From: Methanomicrobium antiquum
GTDB lineage: Archaea > Halobacteriota > Methanomicrobia > Methanomicrobiales > Methanomicrobiaceae
Direction: 5' to 3'
Length of the DNA stretch: 64,000 nt
NCBI RefSeq assembly: GCF_029633915.1
Contig: NZ_CP091092.1
Location: 930,001-994,000 of the forward strand
Every line of letters starts with the position of its first letter. Within the stretch, counting starts at the first letter, position 1. Both the position numbers and the translations under genes were made by a program. The notes under the pieces were generated by a model. The model did no database searches. It had not been told where the DNA came from and saw nothing but the letters and a program-made list of their open reading frames with translations. This document shows positions 17,134 through 24,507 of the stretch, piece by piece.

Positions 17134-17211
17134 GTTACATTTTGTAACGTCTTTTCTTCAATACTGTTACAAAAAGTAACATCTAAATTATTAGGTGTTT
17201 CATAATGTAAC
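17134..17211 (+). promoter_or_regulatory. Three evenly spaced operator-like palindromes
   Basis: Perfect 15-bp palindromes GTTACATTTTGTAAC (17134-17148) and GTTACAAAAAGTAAC (17166-17180), followed by a degenerate third, GTTTCATAATGTAAC (17197-17211), which abuts the RHH start codon at 17212. Centres are 32 and 31 bp apart, about three helical turns, so all face the same side of the DNA. TATATTTT (17121-17128) just upstream, or the AT-rich 17184-17193, could be the TATA box. The arrangement fits cooperative autorepression by the RHH protein (inference). Confidence 0.75.
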
Positions 17212-17391
17212 ATGTCAAAAGTAATCAGAGTGCAGGAGGATGCAATAGAAATTGCTTTAAAATATGGTAATTCTGTAAGCGAAGGTATAAGGTCAATGGA
17301 AAATCAATTGAAAAAACAAAAGTCCGGTATTGATATTGAGGATATTAGGGTAGTAATCCAGGAAGAACTTGAAAATTTAAGGAGATATTAA
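17212..17391 (+). CDS. Small ribbon-helix-helix (CopG/Arc-type) DNA-binding protein
   Basis: 59-aa protein. The N-terminal KVIRVQED strand followed by two helices (about residues 9-19 and 21-32) separated by a GNSVSEG turn is the ribbon-helix-helix pattern of CopG/Arc regulators and of many antitoxins; the tail is charged and helical. The ATG at 17212 follows directly on the third operator-like palindrome; there is no strong Shine-Dalgarno, so the message may be leaderless. It ends 3 nt before the metallophosphoesterase start, so the two form one unit. RHH assignment is by pattern, not by search. Confidence 0.7.
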   Translation: MSKVIRVQEDAIEIALKYGNSVSEGIRSMENQLKKQKSGIDIEDIRVVIQEELENLRRY

Positions 17392-17394
17392 ATT

Positions 17395-18690
17395 TTGAAT
17401 TATGAAGTTTCCCTGTCTTTGAATATAGTTTCAGCAGGCAGAAAAATCTCTGACAGAATTGATGAAATAAAATCTGCGGCTCCCTATTTTGATTATAATT
17501 TTAAAAATGAAATTTTATTGTTTAGCATAAAATTAAGTGATAAAAACGAGTTAAAAACTTTTTTGAATATTGTCGGAAAAAAATTGTTCCAAAAAAAATA
17601 TCTGACTTTAAAAATTGACGGCTGGAGAAGGCAGAAAAAAGGAGAAAAATATGTTTTAAGTTTTCCTGTAAGTCTCCTTGACAGAGATTCAGATTTAATT
17701 TTTGAATTAATTTCGGAGATAAAAAATTCAGTCATATCCGATCTTCCTATGCTCAACAATGAAAATAATTATTTTGACATAACATTTGCTGAAACAAAAA
17801 ATTCAGAGGATTTCAATTATTTCTGGTCGGCAATAGGAGAAAAAAATACTTTTTTTTCAGAACTGCTTTTAAAAACCATTTACAAAAACTGCCAAAAACC
17901 AAATCATGTTCCAAGAAAATTTTGTTTTTCCTTTGACATAATGGAAGTTAAAATCTTAGTAAACAATAAAAACTACGGGTCTTACAATCTGCCCCTGGGC
18001 AGGTTTGTTTATGCATCTGAAAAAAAAATGGTGAAGCAGACTCTTCAGAAATACAGACTGTTAAAAGGGTATGAATTAGCAGAATCTGATGAGAATAAAT
18101 CAGGAAAAATTGTTGAAAATAAGAAAGTCTCTTTTTTTGCAATATCAGACCTGCATCTTGGTCATTTTGATATTATTGATGCAACTGCACGCCCTTTTAT
18201 TACGACAAATACTGATGAAATGGATAAAATCCTGATCTCAAACTGGAATAAAATGGTATCTGAGGGGGGTGTGGTTATTTATGCAGGCGACCTCACATAC
18301 AATCTGGATTCATCAAAAGCAGATAATTACATAAAACAATTAAACGGGAAAATAATTTTTGTCAACGGAAATCATGATACAGTTTCGTATGAAAGCCGGT
18401 TTCAGTATGAATTAAAATATAAAGATCACTTGTTTTTATTCATTCATAATCCCAAATTTTCTCCCGATAACTATCCTGGCTGGATTGTCCATGGACATAC
18501 GCATAACAGCAGAATGTGTGACTGCCCCTTTATAAATTTCAAAAAAAGAACAATCAATATAAGCTGTGAATTGACATCATACCGTCCAATAAATCTTGAT
18601 GAACTGGTTGAAATTATAAATAATGGTTCTATGGGGGGAATTGATAAGATATATAGTATTGATACTGGCTCATTTTTTTATGTGGAATAA
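17395..18690 (+). CDS. Calcineurin-like metallophosphoesterase with novel N-terminal domain
   Basis: 431-aa two-part protein. The C-terminal part (about residues 248-400) is a metallophosphoesterase with the full motif set: FFAISDLHLGH, VIYAGDLTY, FVNGNHD and WIVHGHTHNSR, so both metal sites look intact. It resembles the small family of predicted phosphoesterases with a two-metal site. The N-terminal 240 residues have no motif I recognise. Start is a TTG at 17395 with AAGGAG about 10 nt upstream, immediately after the RHH gene. Substrate unknown; the RHH partner suggests a stress-controlled or toxin-antitoxin-like module (inference). Confidence 0.85.
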   Translation: MNYEVSLSLNIVSAGRKISDRIDEIKSAAPYFDYNFKNEILLFSIKLSDKNELKTFLNIVGKKLFQKKYLTLKIDGWRRQKKGEKYVLSFPVSLLDRDSDLIFELISEIKNSVISDLPMLNNENNYFDITFAETKNSEDFNYFWSAIGEKNTFFSELLLKTIYKNCQKPNHVPRKFCFSFDIMEVKILVNNKNYGSYNLPLGRFVYASEKKMVKQTLQKYRLLKGYELAESDENKSGKIVENKKVSFFAISDLHLGHFDIIDATARPFITTNTDEMDKILISNWNKMVSEGGVVIYAGDLTYNLDSSKADNYIKQLNGKIIFVNGNHDTVSYESRFQYELKYKDHLFLFIHNPKFSPDNYPGWIVHGHTHNSRMCDCPFINFKKRTINISCELTSYRPINLDELVEIINNGSMGGIDKIYSIDTGSFFYVE

Positions 18691-18777: not shown

Positions 18778-19791
18778 TTACATCTTATTTTTGGCTGAAA
18801 CAGATGCGTTGATTACATTCTCACAGATGTCTGCGGAATAATCAGCAACCCTTTTGATACTGTCTGAAATATTTACAATATTTACTGCCACAGATGCTTC
18901 AAATTTCATTGATTCAGTATTGATTTTTTTGCACTGACTTTCAATACATTTTGTTTCTGAAATAATATCATTTGCAGAATATATATCCCTCTTAAAGAAG
19001 GCATCCATGCCTGACTGAAATAATCTGACGGCCTCATGGTTTACCTCTTCAATCTGTATCATTAAATTTTCTGGTAACTTTTTGCCTGAAAGTTTTTTTA
19101 CATTACTGGCAATTCTAGTTGCATGATCTCCTACTCTTTCAATTATTCTGCTGGCAAGAAATAAAACAACAGCATCTTCAGTTGAAATCTTCATCTTTTT
19201 TGAAAGATTCAGATCGTTTAAGATAAGATTTGATTGCCGTCCAATAAGCCAGTGGAGCCTGTCGACATCATTGTCACGAAATATTATATTTTCAGCCAAA
19301 GACAGGTCATTTTCTTTTAATGCAGAAACAGCATCCTGATGCATCTTTACAACAATGACAGACATCCTTAGTATTGTTTTATTAAGAGGCATTTCAGACG
19401 GATTTAAAAGATCTTTTATCAGAACCATGTTGTCTGTTTCATCAACAACTTCCTGTCCAATCGCCATTGTAGTAAATTCTCTTATAATATGCATTGTAAA
19501 CGGGGGAAGACGTCCCTGGGCCCATATTTTCAAAGAAGTATAACCTGAGATATATGCTCCAATAAGACACCTTAGGAAAAAAGTCCTGTCAGTCGTGGAA
19601 TTTATCTCAAACTCCCAGGTTTTTTGTATGCTTTCTCCACTTGTGTTTGGTGTTATAAGAATATTTCCGTCATTTTGAATAACAAGACCTATAGGATCAT
19701 TTTTTTTTATATTTCTCTCTTTTATCCAGTCTTTTGGTAGAGAAATTATATATGATGAACCTCCGCTCATCTGAACCTTTCTTATATCCAT
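18778..19791 (-). CDS. phoU: AbrB-PhoU fusion, phosphate uptake regulator
   Basis: 337-aa archaeal PhoU-type regulator. An AbrB/SpoVT-like DNA-binding domain opens the protein (RKVQMSGGSSYIISLPKDW, residues 4-22), followed by two PhoU helical repeats: about 110-210 with RIIERVGDHATRIASNV, and 225-330 with SIKRVADYSADICENV, both carrying the metal-binding E/D-x-x-x-D pattern. Encoded divergently from pstS across 137 bp. The fused DNA-binding domain suggests that it acts directly on the pst promoter (inference); a second PhoU without this domain is at the end of the pst operon. Confidence 0.9.
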   Translation of the reverse strand: MDIRKVQMSGGSSYIISLPKDWIKERNIKKNDPIGLVIQNDGNILITPNTSGESIQKTWEFEINSTTDRTFFLRCLIGAYISGYTSLKIWAQGRLPPFTMHIIREFTTMAIGQEVVDETDNMVLIKDLLNPSEMPLNKTILRMSVIVVKMHQDAVSALKENDLSLAENIIFRDNDVDRLHWLIGRQSNLILNDLNLSKKMKISTEDAVVLFLASRIIERVGDHATRIASNVKKLSGKKLPENLMIQIEEVNHEAVRLFQSGMDAFFKRDIYSANDIISETKCIESQCKKINTESMKFEASVAVNIVNISDSIKRVADYSADICENVINASVSAKNKM

Positions 19792-19806
19792 ATATACTGG
19801 TATCTA

Positions 19807-19903
19807 TATTCAAACCTATAAAAAATATTCTAACCTTATTTGAATATGTGTTTATATGACATATATGTTCTATTTCGAAAACGCCTATATATTCTCATTT
19901 GAA
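19807..19903. promoter_or_regulatory. Divergent phoU-pstS control region with TTTGAA inverted repeats
   Basis: TATTCAAA (19807-19814) and TTTGAATA (19839-19846) form an inverted pair with starts 32 bp apart, and a further TTTGAA is at 19898-19903 near pstS. TATA-like ATATATG and CTATATATTC stretches lie between 19852 and 19895. These could be sites for the AbrB domain of the divergent PhoU regulator; this is inference from repeat pattern and position only. Confidence 0.4.
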
Positions 19904-19928
19904 CTTTTATAATGGTGAATGAAAACCT

Positions 19929-20807
19929 ATGAATGGCTTGAAATTAACTGGTCTAAAAACTGCAGTAATTGCTGCATTTGTAGTATGTATGGTCATGGTC
20001 TGTGGATGTCTGGGAAGTGATTCTTCTTCCGGAAACAATCCATTATCTGAGAAGGAATCTATTGAAACCCTGTCAGTTACAGGTTCGACAACTGTTCTTC
20101 CTGTTGGCCAGGCTGTTGCTGAAGAATTTATGCGAATAAATCAGAATGCTGATATTCAGTTGTCCGGCGGTGGTTCAAGTGTTGGTGTGCAGGCTGTTGG
20201 TGAAGGAACAGCAGATATTGGAATGGCATCACGTGAACTAAAAGACTCTGAAAAGGAGAAGTATCAAAATCTTGTTCAGCATGTTGTTGCAAAAGACGGC
20301 ATTGCACTAATTGTCAGCAATGAAAATTCAATATCTGAAATCACACTTGATTCTGTAAAAAAGATCTATAAAGGTGAGATTACAAACTGGAAAGAACTTG
20401 GAGGCAGTGATATGGCAGTTGTTGTTGTCGGGCGTGATAGTTCATCCGGAACAAGAGAATTCTTCGCTGAAAAAATAATGGGAGATGATGATTTTGTATC
20501 AACACAGCTTGAGAAAAATTCAAACGGCGCTGTTCTTCAGACTATAAAGCAGACTCCTGGTGGCATTGGATATATCAGTATGGGATATCTTGATGAAAAT
20601 GTCAAAGCTCTTAAAATAAATGAGAATGGTGCTGTAATAGAGCCAACTACTGAAAATGTACTGAATGGAAGATACCCCGTTGCAAGAGGACTTAATATGT
20701 TCACAAATGGTGAACCACAGGGCCTTGCTAAAGAATATCTTAACTTTCTGCTTGGAGAATCCGGTCAGGCAATTGTTGTAAAAGAAGGATATGTCTCAGT
20801 AATTTGA
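19929..20807 (+). CDS. pstS: Phosphate ABC transporter substrate-binding lipoprotein PstS
   Basis: 292-aa extracytoplasmic phosphate-binding protein. The N-terminal hydrophobic signal ends in a VCGC lipobox with the lipid-carrying Cys at residue 27. Phosphate-contact segments are visible: SVTGSTTVLPVGQAVAE, LSGGGSSVGVQAVGEG, and GRDSSSGTREFF, with Ser, Asp and Arg ligands. First gene of pstS-pstCA-pstB-phoU; 240 bp with hairpin-forming sequence separate it from the permease, which may allow PstS to be made in excess. Confidence 0.94.
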   Translation: MNGLKLTGLKTAVIAAFVVCMVMVCGCLGSDSSSGNNPLSEKESIETLSVTGSTTVLPVGQAVAEEFMRINQNADIQLSGGGSSVGVQAVGEGTADIGMASRELKDSEKEKYQNLVQHVVAKDGIALIVSNENSISEITLDSVKKIYKGEITNWKELGGSDMAVVVVGRDSSSGTREFFAEKIMGDDDFVSTQLEKNSNGAVLQTIKQTPGGIGYISMGYLDENVKALKINENGAVIEPTTENVLNGRYPVARGLNMFTNGEPQGLAKEYLNFLLGESGQAIVVKEGYVSVI

Positions 20808-20820
20808 TGAAATTTAAAAA

Positions 20821-20882
20821 AACTGTTCATGAAACTAATTTTTCATGCGATAGTTATCATGGAAATCAGATTTGATTTTCAT
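20821..20882 (+). repeat. Degenerate repeat fragment, paired hairpins after pstS
   Basis: CATGAAA...TTTTTCATG forms one stem (20828-20847), and ATGGAAATC pairs with GATTTTCAT in a second (20859-20882). The pattern resembles the hairpin modules of the dispersed repeat but is diverged. Its location between pstS and the permease gene would suit partial termination or 3'-end protection of the pstS message (inference). Confidence 0.45.
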
Positions 20883-21046
20883 TTATTAAATTTCTCTAAT
20901 TTTGATATAGTTGCTAAATAAGTAATATTCAGCTTTCTTTCAAGATTTGGTGAAGTTTTTTTTAGATTTAATCTTTGATCAAATCTTTAAAAAACCAATC
21001 TGCCAAATTCAGGCAAAGGAGGCTTATTAATAAAGGTAACTGGGAA

Positions 21047-23041
21047 ATGAACAGCAAATTGGCCCAAAAAATGAACAATGAAATGTTTGAATTATACGGA
21101 TGTACAATGCAGAATCTTTATTCAAAAAAATATCTTGAAGAAATAATCATAAAAGCAATTCTTTTCTTAGCGGCAATTTTTGCTGTTGTGACTGTTTTTT
21201 TCATTCTTGTTTTTCTCATTAAAGAGTCGGTTTTTGCATTTTCAACAATAAATCCTTTTGATTTTCTCTTTGGAAGTGTTTGGAATCCTACGGGGATAAA
21301 TCCGGAGTATGGAACACTTCCTCTCTGGACAGGGACTATTCTTGTTACAATCGGCGCAATGGCTATTGCAACACCGCTTGGAATAGGATGTGCGATATAT
21401 CTCTCTGAAATTGCATCTGACAGATTGAAAAAAATTCTTCGCCCTGCAATTGAGCTTTTATCAGGAATTCCCTCAGTAGTTTACGGATTCTTCGGGCTTG
21501 TTGTACTTACAAACTGGCTTAGAATTACTTTTGATGTACCTTCAGGTGAATGTTGGCTTGCAGGTTCTGTTCTTCTGAGTATTATGGCGCTTCCAACAAT
21601 AATCAGCGTCTCAGGAGATGCAATAAGTGCAGTGCCTGTATCTTATAAAAACGGGTCATTTGGTCTTGGTGCAACACACTGGCAGACAATAAGCAGAGTA
21701 ATTCTTCCTGCATCTTTTTCAGGTATAACTGCGGCTGTAATTCTTGGAATGGGAAGAGCAATTGGTGAGACAATGGCTGTTTTGATGGTAGTTGGAAATG
21801 CAGGAATTATTCCTTCTCCTATCACAAATGTTCTGTCTCCGGTAAGAACACTTACATGTACCCTTGGTATTGAGATGGGTGAAGTTGCAGTAAACAGTGA
21901 ACATTACTATGCTTTATTTGGTGTTGCAGTCCTTCTTTTACTTATAACTCTGACTGTAAACTTTTTTGCGGGATATTTAATTAAAAATCTTAGCATATCC
22001 AATAAAAAAGACATTAGAGGATTTAAAGGTCTTAGAGAACTTTTTTCAAAAAAGAAATTTTCAGCAAAAAAGATAACCAAAGTTCTAAAACTAATACTCT
22101 ATGTAATACCTGTAATAATATTATTTTATTTATTTGGGTTTTTGACTGCCTTTGTTTTGTGTTTTACAGCTTTTGTATTTTATTATCTGTCAAAAAAATT
22201 AACTCCGGCAAATTCACAAAAGATAGTGTTTTTTTTAATTCGTTTATCTGCTGTTATTGTTCTAATGGCTCTTGCAGTAATTCTTTTTGATATATTCTCA
22301 AAAGGTATTCCGGCAATCTCCTGGGAATTTTTAACACAGTCTCCTTCAGGACTTGGACGTTATGGAGGGATATATCCGGCAATTGTTGGAACCGTGTATC
22401 TTGTTTTTGGATCAGTTCTTTTTGCTCTTCCAACAGGTGTGGGAGCGGCTGTTTATCTTGTCGAATATACAAAAGAGGGTAAAATTACGTCAATAATCAG
22501 ATCAGGTGTTGACCTTTTAAATGGTACTCCCTCAATTGTTTTTGGTCTTTTTGGATTTTCATTTCTGGTTTTATACCTAAATTTTGGAGTATCCCTTATT
22601 GCCGGGCAGATAACACTTGGTATAATGATTCTTCCAACAATTATCAGAACAGCAGAAGAATCTTTAAAAAGTGTACCGCAGTCAATCAGACATGGAAGCC
22701 TTGCACTCGGAGCATCAAAATGGCAGACAATTATAAAGGTGGTAATACCTCCTGCACTTCCGGGAATTATTACCGGAACAATTCTTTCTGTTGGAAGAGC
22801 CGCAGGCGAGACTGCCCCTATAATGTTTACGGCAGTTGTTTTCTCTTCAAAATTTTTGCCTTCATCTGTATTTGAACCTGTAATGGCACTTCCATATCAT
22901 CTTTTTATTCTGTCAACGAACGTGCCGAATGCTCAGACAAACCAGTATGGGACAGCACTGGTTCTTGTATGTTTTGTCTCTTTTGTCTATCTTGCGGCAA
23001 TAATTGTCAGAAATCATTATCAGAAATCTGTAAAATGGTAG
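21047..23041 (+). CDS. pstC-pstA: Phosphate ABC transporter permease, PstC-PstA fusion
   Basis: 664-aa single protein joining both permease subunits. The N-terminal half is PstC-like, with [17 protein letters not shown] and [18 protein letters not shown] coupling (EAA) loop; the C-terminal half is PstA-like, with [17 protein letters not shown] and [18 protein letters not shown]. Between them (about residues 310-410) are extra hydrophobic segments and a basic linker. I use ATG 21047; an in-frame TTG at 20975 would add 24 residues. No frameshift or internal stop, so the fusion looks real. The pstB gene follows at 38 nt. Confidence 0.9.
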
Positions 23042-23078
23042 ATTTCAGGTTTATTTGTATAAAAAAAGGAGGAATGTA

Positions 23079-23843
23079 ATGAAAAACGAAGATATAATTC
23101 TTGAAACCAAAAATTTATTTTTGAACTATGGAGATAAGCAGGCTTTAAAAGAAGTGAGTCTGAAGGTTTACAAAAACAATGTTACAGCCTTAATTGGCCC
23201 TTCCGGTTGTGGAAAGTCTACTCTTCTGAGATGTTTTAACAGGCTCAATGATCTTTTAGATAACTGCCAGATTAAAGGTGAGGTACTCTACCATGACAAA
23301 AACCTGTATTCACAGGGCATAGATGTTGTACAGATGCGAAAGAAAATAGGCATGGTTTTCCAGCACCCAAATCCTTTTCCGAAATCGATTTATGAAAATG
23401 TTGCATATGGTCCGCGTGTACATGGAGTCAAAGATAAAAAGACACTTGATGAAATAGTAAAAAGATCTTTGAAAAAAGCGGCATTATGGGATGAAGTTCA
23501 TGAAAGACTTTTTGATAATGCAATGAGTCTTTCCGGCGGTCAACAACAGAGGCTTTGTATTGCAAGAACACTTGCTGTAGAGCCCGAAATAATTCTAATG
23601 GATGAACCCTGTTCCGCATTGGATCCTATTGCAACATCAAAGATTGAATCTCTGATTGATACATTAAAACAGGATTTCACAGTGATTATTGTGACACACA
23701 GCATGCAACAGGCGGCAAGAGTCAGTGATTTCACCGGATTTATGTATCTTGGGGAGATGATTGAGTTTGGAAAGACAGAAAAAATTTTTTCAGCTCCTGA
23801 AGTGGAGCTTACAAATAATTACATAACCGGCAGGTTTGGTTAA
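23079..23843 (+). CDS. pstB: Phosphate ABC transporter ATPase PstB
   Basis: 254-aa ATPase. Walker [11 protein letters not shown]-loop [20 protein letters not shown] (the PstB-specific region), signature LSGGQQQRL and Walker [14 protein letters not shown] are all present, ending with the typical NNYITGRFG. The start is ATG 23079, 8 codons inside the longest frame, because GGAGG lies 7 nt upstream. It sits between the fused permease and phoU. Confidence 0.96.
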
Positions 23844-23856
23844 AGGAGATATTGAT

Positions 23857-24507
23857 ATGACAGATAAATTTCACCTGGAAATTCAAAATCTGAAAAAAAT
23901 TACAGCAGAAATGGGTCACTTTTCAATGAAGATGTTTACCGATTCTTTAATGGCATTGAAAAATCTTGATGAGGAAAAGGCAAAAGATGTCTATTTGCGA
24001 AAAGAAAAACTCTTAGAGTACAATAAATTAATTGAAGAAGAAACAATTCGTATTTTATCATTATTTCAGCCGGTGGCAGGTGATTTGCGAACAATTACCT
24101 GCATTAGTCAGATGAACACGTCATTTTATCGTCTGGGAAGAAATGCAAAAGAAATTTCAAATTTTATTGAATTTATGCCACAATTTTCACATCTTGGAAT
24201 TATGAATTCAATATGCCATATGGCCGGTTGTGTATTATCAATGCTCTCAGACTGTCTTTATGCATTTGAAAATGAAGATGCAGAGATTATAAAAACTTTT
24301 TCAGGACGTGAACAGGACATTGATAACCTTCAAAAAACAATCTTTCGTGAAAGTATTACATACATGATGGAGGACAATTCAAAAATAACTGCCTGCACCG
24401 AGTATGTTATGGCATCACGCATTCTTGAAAGGATGGGGGATCATGCCTGTCTAATGGGTGAGAAGATTTATTTTATGATAAAAGGGCAGATGATTGAGAT
24501 AAATTAA
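23857..24507 (+). CDS. phoU: Phosphate uptake regulator PhoU
   Basis: 216-aa helical PhoU with two repeats: the first ends near NTSFYRLGRNAKEISNF and the second near ASRILERMGDHACLMGEK, each with the acidic metal-binding motif. Start at ATG 23857 with AAGGAG upstream. In the family PhoU connects the Pst transporter to regulation. Unlike the divergent regulator at 18778-19791 it has no DNA-binding domain, so the two PhoU proteins probably divide the work, one on transport and one on transcription (inference). Confidence 0.92.
   Translation: MTDKFHLEIQNLKKITAEMGHFSMKMFTDSLMALKNLDEEKAKDVYLRKEKLLEYNKLIEEETIRILSLFQPVAGDLRTITCISQMNTSFYRLGRNAKEISNFIEFMPQFSHLGIMNSICHMAGCVLSMLSDCLYAFENEDAEIIKTFSGREQDIDNLQKTIFRESITYMMEDNSKITACTEYVMASRILERMGDHACLMGEKIYFMIKGQMIEIN

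What the first reader, a model, noticed from the sequence alone, without database searches (positions are those of the whole stretch)
17134..18690. RHH protein and metallophosphoesterase behind three phased operators
Three 15-bp GTTAC-N5-GTAAC palindromes with centres 32 and 31 bp apart run up to the start codon of a 59-aa ribbon-helix-helix protein, which is followed after 3 nt by a metallophosphoesterase with an unknown N-terminal domain. This is the arrangement of an autoregulated antitoxin-toxin or stress module, but with a phosphoesterase as effector, which I do not know as a described pair. The small gene is easily missed because it is under 60 codons.
Basis: partly seen in the sequence, partly recalled or inferred. 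Interest (0 to 1): 0.7.

Follow-up and report, generated by a model that had tools for sequence, protein, structure and literature searches.

The report
Self-regulated DNA-binding gene, changing partners
A tiny methanogen gene for a probable DNA-binding protein sits behind an array of about three evenly spaced binding sites found at essentially no other promoter in its genome; it looks like a self-regulating gene that keeps its sites but changes its neighbour (here a phosphoesterase), rather than a toxin-antitoxin pair.

Summary
Two exact GTTAC-N5-GTAAC palindromes (17134, 17166) and a third with one mismatch (17197, GTTTC) step 32 and 31 bp up to the ATG of a 59-aa gene; a 431-aa phosphoesterase follows after 3 nt. 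The two exact sites are the only exact ones in the 2.44-Mb genome.

The toxin-antitoxin reading is not supported. The small protein is a single-copy gene in four families of one order (Methanomicrobiales). Its operator array stays with it across families; the neighbour does not: phosphoesterase in the window's family, an asparagine-synthase-like gene in another, none in two others and in five genomes of the window's own family. The phosphoesterase also exists without it. The small protein is the more conserved (65% mean identity against 46% and 24% for the phosphoesterase domains). One operator always lies at -46 to -51, before a TATA-like box; one family uses a 6-bp spacer.

Best reading: a self-repressing DNA-binding protein that here also controls a 2H-metallophosphoesterase whose 2H site has lost its catalytic histidines. 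The RHH fold is plausible but unproven. The protein is absent from Pfam; its signal, and its output beyond its own promoter, are unknown.

The parts
17134..17148 (.). operator 1, GTTAC-N5-GTAAC, at -78 from the ATG
   Evidence: exact match; homologous position -77 to -79 in other members of the family
17166..17180 (.). operator 2, GTTAC-N5-GTAAC, at -46; the copy present at -46 to -51 at every small-gene promoter that has operators
   Evidence: exact match
17181..17196 (+). A+T-rich stretch with a TATA-like sequence (ctaaatta, about 17183-17190) directly after operator 2; would place the start of transcription near the ATG (leaderless mRNA), inferred
   Evidence: sequence; TATA-like sequence at the same place in most homologous promoters; not experimentally shown
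17197..17211 (.). operator 3, GTTTC-N5-GTAAC (one mismatch), abutting the start codon
   Evidence: site at -15 to -17 in families f1 and f3
17212..17391 (+). 59-aa probable DNA-binding protein (extended N-terminus plus three helices, RHH-like), single-copy, order-specific
   Evidence: ORF; orthologues in 24 of 28 family genomes and 76 of 199 order genomes; model helices 7-18, 22-37, 42-58
17395..18690 (+). 431-aa two-domain phosphoesterase: residues 1-201 degenerate 2H-phosphoesterase fold, residues 244-409 calcineurin-like metallophosphoesterase with metal-ligand motifs DLH, GD, GNHD, H, HGHTH kept

Best explanation
The 59-aa protein is a small, self-repressing DNA-binding protein specific to Methanomicrobiales. 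It most likely binds, as dimers or pairs of dimers, the palindromes that line up on one face of the helix at 31-32 bp steps across its own promoter. The copy at -46 abuts the TATA-like box, and in this family another covers the presumed transcription start and start codon, so filling the array should block TBP/TFB and RNA polymerase and hold the operon at a set level. In the window's family the same transcription unit (or, in Methanogenium, its own operator pair) brings a two-domain phosphoesterase under this control. Its metallophosphoesterase half looks active, probably on an RNA end or nucleotide; its 2H half has lost both catalytic histidines and probably serves for binding or structure. 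Shown here: operator conservation, near-uniqueness and position; changing partners; domain identities. Inferred: binding by this protein, repression, the phosphoesterase's substrate, any ligand.
For: Array at -78/-46/-15 (f1, f3) or about -110/-79/-47 (f4, f6) of the small gene. f4 uses a 6-bp spacer at nearly all sites and has its own subtype of the protein. Paired arrays are found almost only at this gene: in the f3/f6 searches every hit lies there, controls 0; same with the f4 pattern. In g6 (Methanogenium) the pair lies in the gap directly before the phosphoesterase ATG in 4 of 5 genomes, tying the operator to the phosphoesterase. In g4 a second pair lies before another gene set. Small protein single-copy in the genomes searched, bar two fragmented assemblies with two hits. 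2H fold Z 11-14 to Usb1/LigT, metallophosphoesterase Z 16.4 to 1xm7.
Against: No direct evidence that this protein binds the sites. RHH fold not confirmed by Pfam, PHROGs, profile comparison or Foldseek. Three g1 genomes (G002, G003, G005) and G025 keep the pair without recognisable operators at it. In five genomes the phosphoesterase is elsewhere, with no operator within 400 bp upstream in the four whose upstream DNA could be read, so its control is not a constant feature. A repressor whose only clear target is itself needs another output that was not found.
Confidence: 0.72

Rival explanations
1. Type II toxin-antitoxin module: the small protein neutralises the phosphoesterase by direct contact through its C-terminal helix, and the complex represses the operon.
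For: Gene order and 3-nt gap as in type II modules; conserved C-terminal helix ending in RY; both genes present in the same 24 of 28 family genomes, although assembly gaps remove linked genes together.
Against: Small gene present without the phosphoesterase in f3, f4 and most of f6, unlinked in g8 and g9, with an Asn-synthase-like partner in f6. Phosphoesterase present without it in f5 and f2. One copy per genome, not found in viral contigs, small protein more conserved than the effector in 136 of 136 genome pairs.
Confidence: 0.07
2. The array is not mainly a promoter operator but a single chromosomal site for another job (segregation, replication arrest or anchoring), like the centromere-like repeats upstream of plasmid partition genes; repression is a by-product.
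For: Array essentially confined to one place per genome, phased at about three helical turns; no clear regulon; in 11 of 13 complete genomes the gene lies 0.37-0.49 of the circle from orc1-1 (positions).
Against: Two complete genomes are at 0.14 and 0.17 and relatives are not independent; no partition ATPase was noticed beside the gene; the array is tied to the TATA-like box and in g6 has moved to the phosphoesterase promoter.
Confidence: 0.1
3. The palindromes are bound by another regulator (for example a winged-helix dimer, whose half-sites 10 bp apart would fit well) and the small protein does something else.
For: A 5-bp half-site repeated 10 bp apart also fits a helix-turn-helix dimer; RHH fold unproven.
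Against: The array accompanies the small gene through changes of place and partner and is almost confined to it, as expected of autoregulation; a foreign regulator would be expected to have other targets.
Confidence: 0.11

Closest known systems
RHH (MetJ/Arc, CopG, NikR) repressors
   Same: About 60 aa, extended N-terminal stretch followed by two short helices, palindromic operators in its own promoter
   Different: No Pfam, PHROGs or profile match; helix A about one turn shorter than in Arc or FitA (comparison from memory); extra conserved C-terminal helix ending in RY
Type II toxin-antitoxin operons with RHH antitoxins
   Same: Small DNA-binding gene first, few-nt gap, operator array over the promoter
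   Different: Second gene is exchangeable or absent; single-copy, order-specific; small protein better conserved than partner
2H phosphoesterases (LigT/ThpR, Usb1; PF13563)
   Same: N-terminal domain has the fold (Z 11-14)
   Different: Both HxT/S histidines lost in the window protein
Small calcineurin-like metallophosphoesterases (Aquifex AQ665, 1xm7)
   Same: C-terminal domain, metal-ligand motifs kept (Z 16.4, 26% identity)
   Different: Fused to a 2H domain; 1xm7 is titled a protein of unknown function, and the substrate here is unknown too

Membership tests
RHH superfamily | Sequence profile match to a known RHH family | tested here: not met
   No Pfam RHH hit at E<=1 in 23 members; hhalign against four RHH sequences written from memory gave probability 0.3; PHROGs only weak unnamed hits
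RHH superfamily | Strand-helix-helix core forming an intertwined dimer | tested here: inconclusive
   Monomer model: extended 1-6, helices 7-18 and 22-37, pLDDT 75.6; no Foldseek match; dimer not modelled
RHH superfamily | Binds symmetric operator DNA through the N-terminal ribbon | not testable with these tools
   Operators conserved but binding not measurable here
Type II toxin-antitoxin module | Antitoxin and toxin genes form a conserved co-inherited pair | tested here: not met
   Pair linked only in part of one family; each gene occurs alone elsewhere
Type II toxin-antitoxin module | Second protein is toxic and neutralised by the first | not testable with these tools
   Needs expression tests
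2H phosphoesterase superfamily | Two-lobed 2H fold | tested here: met
   Residues 1-201, Z 11-14 to Usb1, LigT, archaeal 2'-5' RNA ligase-like proteins; PF13563 hits in 8 of 30 homologues, best 7.8e-14
2H phosphoesterase superfamily | Two H-x-T/S motifs | tested here: not met
   NEIL and FDIT in the window protein at the aligned columns; no member of family f1 keeps both histidines; 46 of 80 named loci keep both motifs and none of those has the small gene
Calcineurin-like metallophosphoesterase | Motifs DxH, GD, GNHD, H, GHxH | tested here: met
   D252, H254, G298-D299, G325-N326-H327-D328, H351, H366, H368 invariant in 30 sequences; Pfam PF00149 E 3.7e-4, 0.1 bits under its cut-off; fold Z 16.4

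The most novel reading that the evidence does not exclude
An order-specific family of tiny DNA-binding proteins outside known families whose essentially single chromosomal target is a phased array at its own promoter, kept across four families while the downstream gene was exchanged (2H-metallophosphoesterase, Asn-synthase-like, none): a portable self-limiting expression cassette, or a single-site DNA-organising protein whose promoter is its site.
Probability: 0.4. Interest if true: 0.6.

Novelty: new variant of a known kind. Interest (0 to 1): 0.45.

Why it matters
It gives an unusually clean protein-operator system in methanogens: one gene, almost one target, dozens of natural variants, and a matching spacer change (5 to 6 bp) in one family. 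It can show how an archaeal autoregulator tracks its site and how a regulator changes operon partners. It also identifies a two-domain 2H-metallophosphoesterase family whose 2H active site is lost in the family where it came under this control.

Tried and rejected
Regulon in the window genome: 1-mismatch sites are not enriched (25 against 108 for the reversed control); of 12 inspected, none had the promoter geometry. Viral origin: viral contig scan found no relative. Defence system: PADLOC gave only a 53-residue partial hit to a candidate family (PDC-S10) for the phosphoesterase. PDB sequence search: no relative of the phosphoesterase at E<=0.01, none convincing for the small protein. Foldseek with the small-protein model: nothing. 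Origin or terminus location: suggestive but not independent. Bacterial promoter and terminator scan: not informative for an archaeon. Literature: no paper in the held library combines metallophosphoesterase, toxin-antitoxin and ribbon-helix-helix; nothing on this regulator was seen in the titles and abstracts listed.

Full report
What is there. Three 15-bp palindromes at 17134, 17166 and 17197 (the last with one mismatch) step 32 and 31 bp to the ATG of a 59-aa ORF (17212-17391), and a 431-aa ORF follows 3 nt later. The window is a stretch of a single-contig 2.44-Mb genome of a methanogen; it is placed in one genus (g1) with genomes that, by matching contig lengths and coordinates, include Methanomicrobium mobile and Methanomicrobium MAGs. 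The two exact palindromes are the only exact copies in that genome.

The small gene. Orthologues occur in 24 of 28 genomes of the family, in 76 of 199 of the order (families f1, f3, f4, f6), and in a sample of 393 genomes of the phylum only within this order. They are single-copy; two fragmented assemblies show two hits. None was found in viral contigs. In 17 linked pairs of family f1 the mean pairwise identity is 65% for the small protein, 46% for the phosphoesterase domain and 24% for the N-terminal domain of its partner, and the small protein is the better conserved in all 136 comparisons. It has an extended N-terminus and helices at 7-18, 22-37 and 42-58, which fits an RHH with a short helix A plus a C-terminal helix; but no Pfam family, PHROG, profile comparison or structure match supports the RHH assignment, so I treat it as plausible only.

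The operators. In f1, f3, f4 and f6 the small gene's promoter carries palindromes of the form GTWAC-N5/6-GTWAC at about 31-bp steps: -78, -46, -15 in f1 and f3 (some members keep two of these, g7 one), and about -110, -79, -47 in most f4 and in f6. The copy at -46 to -51 is present at every small-gene promoter that has operators and in most is directly followed by a TATA-like sequence (acatttatc, acatataaat, aaattaaatc), so that copy would cover the TFB recognition element, and in f1 and f3 the next copy would cover the transcription start (inferred from archaeal promoter geometry; no TSS data). Family f4 uses a 6-bp spacer at nearly all sites. Genome scans for two palindromes in register found, in f3 and f6, only this promoter, with zero control hits, and the same holds with the f4 pattern. 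Within f1 the near-exact hits are at this locus apart from a few: a second pair in three g4 genomes before a 176-aa gene and a PAS histidine kinase, divergent from a small membrane-protein gene, and pairs in G002 and G005 (and a 2-mismatch one in G003) at sites not clearly promoters. In g6 (Methanogenium) the small gene's promoter has no sites, but in 4 of 5 genomes a pair lies in the gap to the phosphoesterase, next to the latter's ATG.

The partner changes. In f1 the phosphoesterase follows the small gene in 19 of 24 genomes; in g8 and g9 it lies elsewhere, without operators upstream where that could be read, while the small gene keeps its own. In f6 the next gene is an Asn-synthase domain protein (PF00733, E 2.4e-33), in Methanocorpusculum-type genomes starting right at the stop codon of the small gene, and in others followed by gatC/gatA-like or gatA-like genes (gat names by reading the sequence; genus name by inference). 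In f3 and f4 no co-directional partner directly after the gene was seen. In f5 and f2 the phosphoesterase occurs without the small gene. This is the pattern of an independent autoregulator with replaceable cargo, not of a toxin-antitoxin pair.

The phosphoesterase. The model is good (pLDDT 90). Residues 1-201 superpose on 2H phosphoesterases (human Usb1 Z 14.1, E. coli LigT 12.6, archaeal 2'-5' RNA ligase-like 13.0) and 244-409 on the metallophosphoesterase 1xm7 (Z 16.4). Relatives in Methanoregulaceae and others keep both HxT/S motifs and match PF13563; no member of f1 keeps both histidines, whereas metal-ligand motifs of the second domain are invariant. Of 80 named loci, 46 keep both motifs and none of these has the small gene; the 8 with the small gene keep neither. 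Enzymes of the 2H superfamily are proposed to clear 2',3'-cyclic ends in RNA repair (PMC7824862), so an RNA-end or nucleotide substrate is a fair guess for the original protein; in f1 only the metallophosphoesterase half can be catalytic by known chemistry.

Mechanism, with status. Step 1, the small protein binds the palindromes: inferred from order-wide accompaniment, spacer change and near-uniqueness. Step 2, binding blocks initiation: inferred from position next to the TATA-like box and over the start. Step 3, in f1 this also sets the phosphoesterase level: inferred from the 3-nt gap and, independently, from the operator pair before the phosphoesterase in Methanogenium. Step 4, a signal relieves repression: not known.

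Limits. Incomplete assemblies remove linked genes together, so co-absence in four f1 genomes (76-94% complete) is weak evidence. Taxonomic labels beyond contig titles are inferred. The 31-32 bp steps equal about three helical turns, so the sites face one side; that cooperative binding follows is inference.

Noticed in passing
L110, L111, L117 (G021, G011, G010): Several GTTAC-N5-GTAAC-like palindromes 118-251 bp apart lie near a xerA-like recombinase gene; possibly unrelated sites of the recombinase or another regulator.
   Followed up: no
L109, L118, L121: In genus g4 a second operator pair lies between a small membrane-protein gene and a 176-aa gene followed by a PAS histidine kinase, the clearest candidate for a second target.
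   Followed up: partly
L138-L142, L145, L147: In family f6 the small regulator gene is directly followed by an Asn-synthase-like gene (315-341 aa), in some with gatC/gatA-like or gatA-like genes downstream.
   Followed up: partly
positions: In 11 of 13 complete genomes the small gene lies 0.37-0.49 of the chromosome away from orc1-1, but 0.14 and 0.17 in two.
   Followed up: partly
window 18778-24507: A MazE-like (PF04014) plus PhoU (PF01895) regulator, a PstS-like protein, a 688-aa fused Pst-like permease, PstB-like and PhoU-like proteins lie downstream of the pair; a similar regulator gene is also beside the phosphoesterase in G016 (L004).
   Followed up: no
L114 (G005) and G002:C33:6728-6799: Two GTTAC-N5-GTAAC palindromes 57 bp apart recur in two Methanomicrobium genomes, away from the small regulator gene.
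   Followed up: no
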